Part shown: positions 11,550-37,558 of the stretch, piece by piece
Layout: every line of letters begins with the position of its first letter
Position numbering within the stretch: the first letter of the stretch is position 1
DNA from: Ignisphaera sp.
GTDB lineage: Archaea; Thermoproteota; Thermoprotei_A; Sulfolobales; Ignisphaeraceae
Assembly: GCA_038735125.1 (NCBI GenBank)
Contig: JAVYNU010000001.1
Location: 343,672-407,671 of the forward strand
DNA: 64,000 bases
Direction of reading: 5' to 3'
Program-made: the position numbers and the translations under genes
Notes under the pieces: generated by a model
Database searches by the model: none
What the model saw: only the letters and a program-made list of their open reading frames with translations
What the model was told of the DNA's origin: nothing

Positions 11550-11655
11550 AGCCGGGGCCGGGATTCGAACCCGGGGAATATCGGGTCTCGACAGGCGGTT
11601 TTTGCCGGAAAAGCCCGCTGCAGCCCGACGCCTTAGACCGCTCGGCCACCCCGGC
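11550..11655 (-). tRNA. tRNA-Cys(GCA) with intron
   Basis: The acceptor GCCGGGG/CCCCGGC with U73 and anticodon GCA identify cysteine tRNA. Exon 1 is 11655-11618, a 31-nt intron lies at 11617-11587 at the canonical 37/38 position, and exon 2 is 11586-11550. Anticodon stem TCGGG/CCCGA is restored after splicing. The intron end-points are inferred from the cloverleaf and may shift by a base. CCA is encoded at 11547-11549. Confidence 0.93.
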
Positions 11656-11752: not shown

Positions 11753-11873
11753 TGCCGCCGGGGGGACTTGAACCCCCGACTTCCCGGTCTTCAGCTTCGC
11801 CGAGCACCCGCTCTGAGTGTTTTGCATTATGCACGGGTGCTCACGGGCGCTCTCCCAGCTGAGCTACGGCGGC
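11753..11873 (-). tRNA. tRNA-Phe(GAA) with a non-canonical intron in the anticodon stem
   Basis: The outer arms form a standard tRNA-Phe: acceptor GCCGCCG/CGGCGGC with A73, and the uninterrupted loop CTGAAGA with anticodon GAA. The anticodon stem CCCGG/CCGGG is complete only if 48 nt (11843-11796) are removed between positions 30 and 31. The intron has a GAGCACCCG/CGGGTGCTC helix at its base, consistent with a bulge-helix-bulge splice site. Exon 1 is 11873-11844 and exon 2 is 11795-11753. CCA is not encoded. Taw3, which acts on G37 of this tRNA, is encoded at 43.5 kb. Confidence 0.92.
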
Positions 11874-20217: not shown

Positions 20218-20539
20218 GGTTCCTGGCCCGCAGACTGCTACGGGGCCTACCCCCGAGGAAACACCATCCTCCGCACAGCACCAGAGCCCCGCAAGGGGCT
20301 AGGGTAACACCCTAGGCTCTGGCACAGAAACGATACAGCTACAAACCGATGAATATGAGGTGGTGAGGCCCCCCAGGTAACTAGGGGGCAGAAACCCGCC
20401 GACGAGGTTTGTAGCAGTGGTGAAACGGCCAGCCTCTGGGGAGTAAGGAAAACCCCGATGAACTGCTGTGTGAAGGGGTTGAAAACCGCTTAGCCAAATG
20501 CAGTCGAAACAGAAGATGGGTTACTGCGGGCCAGGAACC
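20218..20539 (+). ncRNA. rnpB: RNase P RNA
   Basis: About 322 nt of G+C-rich sequence is closed by a long terminal stem (GGTTCCTGGCCCGCAG with CTGCGGGCCAGGAACC, helix P1). The conserved CR-I segment CCGAGGAAAC is near 20255. A CACAGAAACGATACAGC block resembles the CR-II/III core. The 3' strand of the catalytic core, ACAGAAGATGGGTTA, lies just before P1 closes. This order and these motifs fit archaeal RNase P RNA, which trims tRNA 5' leaders. It stands alone with its own TATA box. Confidence 0.85.
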
Positions 20540-34585: not shown

Positions 34586-35668
34586 GTGGGAAGAAAAAAG
34601 CGTTTTGCTTTGGTGAAAAGATTGATTGTTGTTGATGGTAGTTTTGGCGAGGGTGGTGGGCAGATACTTAGAACAGCTATAGGATTGTCAGCTGCTCTTG
34701 GTAAGCCAGTTAGAATAGTTAATATAAGGGCTAGGAGGAGCAACCCCGGTTTGCAGCACCAGCATTTAACAGCTGTGAAGGCTCTTACCCAAATCTCTAA
34801 CGCTAGGGTCGAGGGAGCATACATAGGCTCTACACAGCTTGTTTTCGAGCCAAGGGGCTTGAGGGGAGGAGAATACGTATTCGACGTTGGGACAGCTGGT
34901 AGTGTAACACTTGTTCTACAAGCACTTACACCTGTGTTGCCATTCCTCGACAGGGAGAGCGTTATAGAGATTAGAGGGGGTACAGACGTGCCCTGGAGCC
35001 CACCAATAGACTACATAAAGTATGTGTTTATACCGATTGCAAAGAGGCTTGGGTTAGACATGGAAATCAGGCTTATTAGAAGGGGTCACTATCCTAGGGG
35101 TGGTGGAATCATAAAGGTATATGTTCGCCCATCCAAAAAGCTAAGTGCTTTAGAGCTCATCGAGAGAGGGTCTATAAAGAGGATTGGTGGGAGATCACAT
35201 TCCGTCAAGCTTCCAAAACATGTTGCTGAAAGACAGGCTAAAGCAGCTAGGGACTATCTATCGCGTCTCTCCATACCAATAAACATTGAGCTAGAGTTTT
35301 ACGAACCTGATAAAGATCCTCATCTAGGTCCTGGCAGCGGCATTGTGCTATATGCAGAAACTGATGAGAGTTTCTTGGGGGCTGATGCAATTGGTGAAAA
35401 GGGGAAGCCTGCTGAGGATGTTGGTAGAGAAGCTGCAGCAAAGCTCTTAGAAGAGATTGAAAGTAGAGCAGCGCTAGACAGCCATATGGGGGATATGATA
35501 GTCTCCCTAGCCTGCCTAGCAAATGGTGTTACAAAATACACAACATCCAAGCTAACACTACATACAGAAACCGTTCTAAAGATAGCCAAAGACATTGCTG
35601 GATGTAGCTATATGGTATCAGACTACGGTAAGGCGAAACTTATTGAGATAAAGGGTATAAAGGCTTAG
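34586..35668 (+). CDS. rtcA: RNA 3'-terminal phosphate cyclase
   Basis: RtcA converts RNA 3'-phosphate ends to 2',3'-cyclic phosphates using ATP. The family start VVDGSFGEGGGQILRTA is followed by SNPGLQHQHLTAVKAL, FDVGTAGSVTLVLQALTPVL, RRGHYPRGGGI and LGPGSGIVLYAET. The catalytic His is near SHMGDMIVSL or TLHTETVL as in relatives. The ORF opens at GTG 34586; the GTG at 34613 gives a better family length (351). Confidence 0.94.
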   Translation: MGRKKRFALVKRLIVVDGSFGEGGGQILRTAIGLSAALGKPVRIVNIRARRSNPGLQHQHLTAVKALTQISNARVEGAYIGSTQLVFEPRGLRGGEYVFDVGTAGSVTLVLQALTPVLPFLDRESVIEIRGGTDVPWSPPIDYIKYVFIPIAKRLGLDMEIRLIRRGHYPRGGGIIKVYVRPSKKLSALELIERGSIKRIGGRSHSVKLPKHVAERQAKAARDYLSRLSIPINIELEFYEPDKDPHLGPGSGIVLYAETDESFLGADAIGEKGKPAEDVGREAAAKLLEEIESRAALDSHMGDMIVSLACLANGVTKYTTSKLTLHTETVLKIAKDIAGCSYMVSDYGKAKLIEIKGIKA

Positions 35669-35982: not shown

Positions 35983-36216
35983 CTACATAGGCGATATAAC
36001 AACTATGTTCTCTCCCCTTATGAGCACAGTTCCAAGTCTCCTCCAATTGCCATCGCCAAGCTCCTCCTCAGCATCGTCAAGTACAATGTTTAGATGCAGG
36101 TCATAGCTTCTCAGCTTACCTCTTATAGACTTGCCACCTCTAAGCTTGATCAACACAAGCTGCCCTAGAGACTCAGCCAATATCTTATGCGATGTATCAA
36201 TTTGTTGGCTGCTCAT
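35983..36216 (-). CDS. LSm (Sm-like archaeal) RNA-binding protein
   Basis: Archaeal LSm proteins form heptameric rings that bind U-rich RNA. Sm1 and Sm2 motifs are seen: GQLVLIKLRGGKSIRGKLRSYDLHLNIVLDDAEE and GTVLIRGENIVVIS. ATG 36216 (MSSQQID) gives 77 residues, the family length; the frame is open further upstream but that part overlaps the divergent promoter and is not Sm-like. It is co-directional with eL37. Confidence 0.95.
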   Translation of the reverse strand: MSSQQIDTSHKILAESLGQLVLIKLRGGKSIRGKLRSYDLHLNIVLDDAEEELGDGNWRRLGTVLIRGENIVVISPM

Positions 36217-36319
36217 AGTTATTCCTCGTATCGTTAGCTTAGTCGAGGTAGAGTTATAAGCTTTATTCACCTTATTAGCTACAACATCACACACCTTATA
36301 TGCTATACAGGTAGAGACC

Positions 36320-36829
36320 ATGATAATAGGGGTTATGAGCGATTCTCATGACTATCTAAATGCTATTGCAAAGGCTCTTGAGGTATTCAGAAAAGGTGGT
36401 GTCGAGGCAATAATACACCTTGGCGATGTTATATCCCCTTTTGCGCTAATGAAAATATTGGAGTATCCAGGGAGGATAGTGATTGTTCTAGGGAACAACG
36501 ATGGAGATGTGGTTACACTTAAAGAGCTTGCCTCAAAAGCTGGGGCAACGCTAAAAAGAGAGGTTCACCAGCTGGAGGTTTCTGGAAAAAGATTCTTCTT
36601 GATGCACGGATTTGGAGACACCGAGCAAACAAAAGTTATTGCAGAGGCTATGGCCTTAACAGGCAAATACGATGTGGTGTTATATGGACATACACACAAA
36701 GTTGATGTGAGACAAATTGGAAAAACACTTATTTTGAACCCTGGGGAGGTCTGCGGCTATCTAACAAATAGAAGAACAGTTGCCATACTAAACACAGAGA
36801 CACTCGAATACAGCATAGCAGAATTTTGA
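36320..36829 (+). CDS. YfcE/MJ0936-type metallophosphoesterase
   Basis: The calcineurin-like fold is shown by MSDSHDYLNAI (metal 1), IHLGDVISPF, VLGNNDGDV, LMHGFGD, YGHTHKVDVRQ and LNPGEVCGYL. MJ0936 relatives hydrolyse phosphodiesters such as cyclic nucleotides or nucleic-acid ends with Mn or Ni. At 169 residues it is normal. It is divergent from the LSm gene and ends about 50 nt before tRNA-His. Confidence 0.92.
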   Translation: MIIGVMSDSHDYLNAIAKALEVFRKGGVEAIIHLGDVISPFALMKILEYPGRIVIVLGNNDGDVVTLKELASKAGATLKREVHQLEVSGKRFFLMHGFGDTEQTKVIAEAMALTGKYDVVLYGHTHKVDVRQIGKTLILNPGEVCGYLTNRRTVAILNTETLEYSIAEF

Positions 36830-36877: not shown

Positions 36878-36970
36878 GGCCGCGGTAGCTCAGCCTGGTT
36901 AGAGCGCGGGACTGTGGGGCTAAAATGCGCAGAGATCCCGAGGTCCCGGGTTCAAATCCCGGCCGCGGCC
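36878..36970 (+). tRNA. tRNA-His(GTG) with intron and encoded G-1
   Basis: The extra 5' G-1 (36878) opposite C73 is encoded, as expected for histidine tRNA. The acceptor is GCCGCGG/CCGCGGC and the anticodon GTG. A 17-nt intron (36918-36934) sits at the canonical 37/38 position. CCA is not encoded. HisRS is at 15.7 kb. Confidence 0.94.
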
Positions 36971-37236: not shown

Positions 37237-37240
37237 TTTT

Positions 37241-37318
37241 TGTACCCCGCCTAACCGATCTCTCCACATCTCCATCCCCATCAACGGGTCTTTAAGAGAG
37301 ACGTGAGGTAGCGGGGCC
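37241..37318 (-). ncRNA. candidate H/ACA guide sRNA
   Basis: On the minus strand a lower stem GCCCCGC/GCGGGGT is followed at once by ACA (37241-37243). Above it is an asymmetric internal loop (TACCTCAC and GGTTAG) fit for a pseudouridylation pocket, then an upper stem GTCTCTC/GAGAGAT and an apical part with TGATG, as expected for a kink-turn bound by L7Ae. A TATA-like GTTTTATTAG (37341-37350) is about 27 nt upstream of the 5' end. Gar1 is encoded at 53 kb. The apical kink-turn is imperfect, so the call is tentative. Confidence 0.4.
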
Positions 37319-37406
37319 AAGCAAAAAACTCTTCTCATAGCTAATAAAACTTAATCAAAGTTGTTCCACTTAATTTCATTGAATAAAAACTGTTTAAGAA
37401 TTTGGT

Positions 37407-37505
37407 GGGGCCGTTTGGTAGCGGGGGGTGGATTTGAACCACCGACCTCGGGGTTATGAGCCCCGCGGGCTGCCAGGCTGCCCTACCCCGCTATTTCACG
37501 GCCCC
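37407..37505 (-). repeat. 8-bp inverted repeat bracketing initiator tRNA-Met
   Basis: GGGGCCGT (37407-37414) and ACGGCCCC (37498-37505) are perfect complements placed just outside the two ends of the tRNA. The precursor can therefore extend its acceptor stem through a 5-nt internal loop on each side. Confidence 0.85.
37419..37492 (-). tRNA. initiator tRNA-Met(CAT)
   Basis: The minus strand has A1-U72 (AGCGGGG/CCCCGCT) and three G-C pairs in the anticodon stem (CGGGG/CCCCG), the initiator hallmarks, with loop CTCATAA. There is no intron. CCA is encoded at 37416-37418. Confidence 0.96.
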
Positions 37506-37558
37506 ATTTCTCACATATTCTGTTTTTGTGCCTAAAAAGTGTTTTGTTTCGTTGAGTT

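What the first reader, a model, noticed from the sequence alone, without database searches (positions are those of the whole stretch)
37407..37505. Initiator tRNA bracketed by a perfect 8-bp inverted repeat
GGGGCCGT and ACGGCCCC sit five to six nt outside the mature ends, so the precursor can form an extended acceptor stem with a symmetric internal loop at both processing sites. The structure resembles a bulge-helix-bulge placed around the tRNA ends. This could mean processing by the splicing endonuclease, precursor circularisation, or control of initiator maturation. The other tRNAs here lack such a repeat.
Basis: partly seen in the sequence, partly recalled or inferred. Interest (0 to 1): 0.65.

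Follow-up and report, generated by a model that had tools for sequence, protein, structure and literature searches.

The report
Nested second acceptor stem on initiator tRNA
In a whole order of heat-loving archaea, the precursor of the tRNA that starts every protein is wrapped in a second helix that looks like another tRNA end, CCA included; no other tRNA checked has it, and no description of it was found.

Summary
On the minus strand the iMet precursor has an outer 7-bp helix (GGGGCCG/CGGCCCC, plus one U-A pair) followed by A-CCA. That copies the end of a tRNA: 7 bp, discriminator, CCA. It is unique among the 46 tRNA genes of this genome.

The same design recurs across the order: an exact outer complement in 60 of 89 iMet loci, 34 of 44 genera and all 11 families sampled, with NCCA in 48 of those 60. 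The helix covaries (nine different sequences). The 5' spacer is almost always 6 nt; the 3' spacer varies. TATA boxes place the transcription start at or just above the outer G1. It is absent from other archaeal classes sampled and lost in several lineages. In Sulfolobaceae-like genomes, where tRNA genes rarely encode CCA, the outer NCCA is still encoded.

No locus fits bulge-helix-bulge geometry (0 of 62), so splicing-endonuclease excision or circularisation is not supported.

Best explanation: a nested, tRNA-like outer end that sets the precursor's 3' end, probably for RNase Z, and orders maturation. The structure is well supported; the function is inferred. No prior description turned up in the open papers searched.

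The parts
37419..37492 (-). initiator tRNA-Met (CAU), positions 1-73, A1:U72 initiator pair
   Evidence: ARAGORN and Rfam RF00005; sequence AGCGGGG...CCCCGCUA
37416..37418 (-). inner encoded CCA
37499..37505 (-). outer helix 5' strand GGGGCCG (U37498 pairs with A37414 as an 8th bp)
   Evidence: fold; conserved and covarying in relatives
37493..37498 (-). 6-nt 5' spacer UGAAAU; length nearly invariant in relatives; RNase P site at its 3' edge (inferred)
37407..37413 (-). outer helix 3' strand CGGCCCC
37403..37406 (-). outer discriminator-like A plus CCA (outer NCCA)
   Evidence: NCCA in 48 of 60 outer-stem loci
37533..37538 (-). TATA-box-like TTTTTA about 30 nt before the outer G1; predicts a start at or just above 37505
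   Evidence: TATA centres cluster at -27 to -30 from outer G1 in relatives
37380..37402 (-). T-rich stretch after the outer CCA (likely termination region)
   Evidence: pyrimidine-rich after outer CCA across 53 loci

Best explanation
The iMet precursor carries a second, outer end built like a tRNA acceptor end: a G1-starting 7-bp helix, a purine discriminator-like base and CCA. Shown: the helix exists, covaries, is confined to iMet in the genomes checked and to one archaeal clade, mostly keeps NCCA, and starts near the predicted transcription start. Inferred: because the outer helix has no 5' extension, archaeal RNase Z (cuts right after an encoded CCA, needs an acceptor stem and a near-mature 5' end) can trim the 3' end at the outer CCA before RNase P acts. 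The outer NCCA end protects this intermediate. RNase P then cuts in the open internal loop, removing the 13-nt leader and so the outer helix, and RNase Z (plus CCA addition where CCA is not encoded) finishes the inner end. The outer stem thus fixes the order and timing of initiator maturation.
For: Covariation: 19 cells with changes on both sides vs 3.8 in shuffles, score 0.250 vs 0.078, and sliding the partners destroys it; 34 of 43 loci fully paired vs at most 27 in 10,000 permutations, and 11 of 12 loci whose leader is not GGCGGGG fully paired. NCCA in 48 of 60, N = A/G in 44 of those 48. In a Sulfolobaceae-like genome only 1 of 30 tRNA genes encodes CCA and iMet has no inner CCA, yet the outer ACCA is encoded. 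TATA position puts the start at or just above outer G1. The outer CCA is followed at once by a pyrimidine-rich tract. Of 16 loci with a 3' spacer of 14 nt or more, 11 carry a GC hairpin that ends at or within 1 nt of the outer 3' strand, like a T arm next to an acceptor strand. Published archaeal RNase Z: cuts just 3' of an encoded CCA, needs the acceptor stem, can act without D, T or anticodon arm (Co2+), and 5' extensions of 10 nt or more suppress it (PMC7479834).
Against: No RNA data: start site, precursor ends and enzyme use are all inferred. 12 of 60 outer stems lack NCCA, and the stem is lost in some lineages (G009 of the same genus; genera g13 and g39), so it is not essential. The RNase Z facts come from two methanogen enzymes in vitro, where CCA was not required for cleavage. 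Why only iMet has it is not explained.
Confidence: 0.38

Rival explanations
1. Leader-trailer clamp: the outer helix only holds the two ends of the precursor together, helping iMet fold at high temperature and keeping the parts together where the gene has long introns or is split.
For: Several relatives have iMet with 176-1,568 nt between the parts, some with their own TATA box before the 3' part, long complementary joining stems, and the outer helix kept on both parts (L032, L041, L042, L161, L165, L211). An unpaired outer 3' strand would mis-pair with the acceptor stem; the 5' strand restores it.
Against: Predicted acceptor-stem formation is no better with the outer stem than with both strands made neutral (0.997 vs 0.997 in f1; 0.50 vs 0.55 elsewhere, 37 C). 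A pure clamp does not need NCCA. Most outer-stem loci, this one included, are unsplit.
Confidence: 0.3
2. Historical remnant: an ancestral duplication of iMet's acceptor ends (GGCGGGGUA... resembles AGCGGGGUA...) kept mainly by the needs of transcription initiation and end stability.
For: The commonest outer stem differs from iMet's own acceptor stem by one pair (G1-C72 for A1-U72), and some relatives read as a near-tandem 13-mer (GGCGGGGUAGGGC AGCGGGGUAGGGC). Several lineages have lost the 3' strand.
Against: Covariation and repeated replacement of the helix sequence need selection on pairing.
Confidence: 0.17
3. One reading: a bulge-helix-bulge-like element cut by the splicing endonuclease, with circular or excised iMet precursors.
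For: Archaeal pre-rRNAs are processed this way (literature); splicing endonuclease is present; iMet is permuted in Thermofilum pendens (PMC3218864).
Against: 0 of 62 loci allow the geometry; the 3' spacer varies from 0 to 28 nt; RNase P RNA is present.
Confidence: 0.05

Closest known systems
Archaeal pre-rRNA processing stems (leader-trailer helices with bulge-helix-bulge)
   Same: Complementary leader and trailer enclose a mature RNA and bring its ends together.
   Different: No bulge-helix-bulge, 7 bp only, ends in NCCA, encloses one tRNA.
Extended acceptor stems of bacterial pre-tRNAs (leader pairing with 3' RCCA; PMC9433436)
   Same: Leader and trailer extend the acceptor stem and can slow RNase P.
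   Different: There positions -1/-2 pair with RCCA directly; here a loop of 4 nt or more leaves the cut site open, and the helix lies outside it and is conserved across an order.
Split and permuted tRNAs of archaea (Nanoarchaeum, Caldivirga, Staphylothermus, Aeropyrum tRNA-Asp, Thermofilum iMet)
   Same: GC-rich complementary flanks outside tRNA parts; iMet is among the affected tRNAs.
   Different: Their helices sit at internal splice junctions and form BHB; this one sits outside the true ends of an intact gene.
Nanoarchaeum equitans leaderless tRNAs (PMC3491384)
   Same: Promoter placed to fix the RNA 5' end at a purine on an acceptor-like helix.
   Different: There the start is the mature end; here it is the outer pseudo-acceptor end and RNase P is present.

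Membership tests
Bulge-helix-bulge splicing-endonuclease substrate | 3-nt bulge, 4-bp helix, 3-nt bulge between two flanking helices | tested here: not met
   0 of 62 loci
Bulge-helix-bulge splicing-endonuclease substrate | Ligated or circular product | not testable with these tools
   needs RNA sequencing
Permuted tRNA gene | 3' part encoded before the 5' part | tested here: not met
   iMet is in normal order, 74 nt without intron
Split (trans-spliced) tRNA gene | Parts in separate transcripts | tested here: not met
   contiguous in this genome; interrupted in several relatives
Conserved RNA helix (leader-trailer stem) | Compensatory changes across relatives | tested here: met
   5 of 7 pairs show two-sided changes; covariation score above all 500 shuffles and all slides
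tRNA-acceptor-like end | 7 bp, one discriminator-like base, CCA | tested here: met
   window 37505-37499/37413-37407 plus 37406-37403; NCCA in 48 of 60 loci
tRNA-acceptor-like end | Recognised by RNase Z, CCA-adding enzyme or other tRNA enzymes | not testable with these tools
   needs in vitro assay
Mobile-element attachment site or DNA inverted repeat | DNA-level repeat without RNA-register constraint | tested here: inconclusive
   near-fixed 13-nt leader, start position and NCCA argue for RNA; DNA roles not directly tested

The most novel reading that the evidence does not exclude
Initiator tRNA in this order is made through a dedicated pathway: a primary transcript that begins and ends as a pseudo-tRNA acceptor end, is trimmed by tRNA 3'-end enzymes at the outer CCA first, and is held as a stable precursor from which iMet is released by RNase P, giving the cell a control point on translation initiation.
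Probability: 0.2. Interest if true: 0.85.

Novelty: new variant of a known kind. Interest (0 to 1): 0.62.

Why it matters
Pre-tRNA flanks are usually treated as featureless. Here one tRNA, the initiator, has a covarying outer helix with its own NCCA kept across an archaeal order, including where tRNA genes otherwise do not encode CCA. It marks initiator biogenesis as special, gives a directly testable substrate for RNase P and RNase Z, and may bear on why iMet in these archaea so often carries long introns or separated parts.

Tried and rejected
BHB geometry search in all outer-stem loci: none. Folding benefit: no gain over neutral flanks. An outer helix on other tRNAs: not in the 46 own tRNAs. 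In 30 tRNAs each of two relatives, iMet alone has it with NCCA; one other tRNA in G041 has an 8-bp flank match (ACCGGGAA/TTCCCGGT) without NCCA and at another spacing. Outer stem as a mimic of another tRNA's acceptor stem (here identical to two tRNA genes beginning GGGGCCG, probably Pro): other families have different helices, so judged coincidence. First anchoring of the outer 3' strand for covariation slipped by 3 nt in many rows and was redone independently of the 5' strand. A first folding control replaced the leader by a strand that could itself mis-pair, so it was replaced by neutral flanks. Danan et al. 2012 (archaeal circular RNAs) is not held. Literature searches gave no description of this element; closed journals were not searched.

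Full report
Observation. The iMet gene lies on the minus strand, A1 at 37492 and A73 at 37419, with CCA encoded at 37418-37416. GGGGCCGT (37505-37498) and ACGGCCCC (37414-37407) pair perfectly; the strand folds as the cloverleaf plus an 8-bp outer helix across a 4x4 loop. Among 46 tRNA genes of the genome this is the best leader-trailer stem; none of 2,070 mispaired flanks equals it, and 9 of 20,000 shuffles do.

The outer 3' strand is followed by A-CCA (37406-37403). The outer element is therefore 7 bp, one base, CCA: the anatomy of a tRNA acceptor end, nested outside the real one.

Relatives. In a sample of the same order (11 families) the design recurs: 7 nt, 6-nt spacer, iMet, variable 3' spacer, complementary 7 nt, NCCA. 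Of 89 loci with both ends read, 60 have the exact Watson-Crick complement of the leader 7-mer in their own trailer; these cover 34 of 44 genera and all 11 families. NCCA follows in 48 of 60, with A or G as the first base in 44. Helices include GGGGCCG (this family), GGCGGGG (most), GGCGGGA, GGCGGGT, GGCGGAG, GGAGGGT, GGGGGGT, GGTAGGG and GGTGGGG, each with its complement. With the 3' strand anchored independently of the 5' strand, 34 of 43 non-redundant loci pair at all 7 positions, against at most 27 in 10,000 permutations; 11 of 12 loci whose leader is not GGCGGGG pair fully. The pair-count tool gives 89.7% paired cells, 5 of 7 pairs with two-sided changes, covariation score 0.250 against 0.078, all slides lower.

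Distribution. In 111 further iMet-like loci from a pattern scan of named genomes, a GC-rich helix in this register occurs only in members of the same group (Desulfurococcales MAGs L227, L246, L253, L254; Acidilobaceae L211; Thermosphaera L261; Pyrodictiaceae L274), not in Nitrososphaeria, Bathyarchaeota, Euryarchaeota, DPANN or Thermoproteus. Elsewhere in the class it is absent in family f12 (and in f15, read by eye) and present in f13 (one short contig, which could be a binning error) and f14. It is lost in some members: G009 in the window's own genus, and genera g13 and g39.

Clues to function. TATA-like boxes centre 27-30 nt before the outer G1 in 35 of the 50 loci with a box, so transcripts should begin at or just above the outer helix. 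A pyrimidine-rich tract begins right after the outer CCA. Of 16 loci with a 3' spacer of 14 nt or more, 11 hold a GC hairpin ending at or within 1 nt of the outer 3' strand, like a T arm next to an acceptor strand. In G046 only 1 of 30 tRNA genes encodes CCA, its iMet has no inner CCA, yet the outer ACCA is encoded; all six outer-stem loci of that family have outer NCCA and no inner CCA. So the outer NCCA is not a by-product of a habit of encoding CCA.

Against BHB. In 62 outer-stem loci no 3-nt bulge / 4-bp / 3-nt bulge arrangement is possible even when base pairs are borrowed from either stem. RNase P RNA is in this window (20222-20535). Splicing endonuclease exists, as expected for intron-bearing tRNAs.

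Mechanism. Two methanogen RNase Z enzymes cut just after an encoded CCA, need the acceptor stem, can act without D, T or anticodon arms (with Co2+), and one is markedly suppressed by 5' extensions of 10 nt or more, the other by 5 nt (PMC7479834). The outer helix starts at the predicted transcript start and offers such a substrate; the inner tRNA, with its 13-nt leader, does not until RNase P has acted. I therefore prefer an ordered scheme: trim at the outer CCA, RNase P in the open loop, then the inner 3' cut. Bacterial work shows leader pairing close to the cut site slows RNase P (PMC9433436); the open loop here would avoid a full block. All of this is inference. A plain clamp is the main rival: relatives with interrupted iMet keep the outer strands on both parts, but thermodynamic predictions show no folding gain over neutral flanks.

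Interrupted iMet in relatives. Gaps of 176-1,568 nt occur at 37/38, about 29/30 or 59/60, with 12-24 nt complementary joining stems. Three of the long gaps hold open frames with LAGLIDADG similarity, one strong and two weak, so these are probably homing-endonuclease introns. Short gaps with a TATA box before the 3' part may be true split genes. RNA data are needed.

Novelty. Searches of 5.39 million open papers found no description of this element. It is a leader-trailer helix, a known kind of thing, in a form (acceptor-like, NCCA-ended, initiator-only, order-wide) that I could not find reported.

Noticed in passing
window 37240-37316, minus strand: Conserved GC-closed hairpin with a K-turn-like middle and a 3' ACA (CCCCGCUACCUCACGUCUCUC...GAGAGAUCGGUUAGGCGGGGUACA), found downstream of iMet in 11 of 13 family loci checked; looks like an unannotated H/ACA guide RNA (no Rfam match).
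   Followed up: partly
L042, L044, L130, L161, L162, L165, L211: iMet genes whose two parts lie 176-295 nt apart with long complementary joining stems and, in several, a TATA box before the 3' part: candidate split (trans-spliced) initiator tRNAs or unusual long introns.
   Followed up: partly
L032, L041, L163 (also L045, L128 with 300+ aa frames, no Pfam match or not tested): iMet interrupted by 0.7-1.6 kb with frames similar to LAGLIDADG homing endonucleases.
   Followed up: partly
L221, Sigynarchaeota contig: iMet flanked by an unrelated 12-bp perfect helix CTGAGCACCCCG/CGGGGTGCTCAG, without NCCA; a single case outside the order.
   Followed up: no
window 34586-35668, plus strand; 35983-36321, minus strand: RNA 3'-terminal phosphate cyclase and an Lsm-domain protein lie near the iMet gene; no link tested.
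   Followed up: no
window 11550-11655, 11753-11873, 36879-36970: Three longer tRNA genes (probably intron-bearing) found by Rfam but missed by ARAGORN.
   Followed up: no
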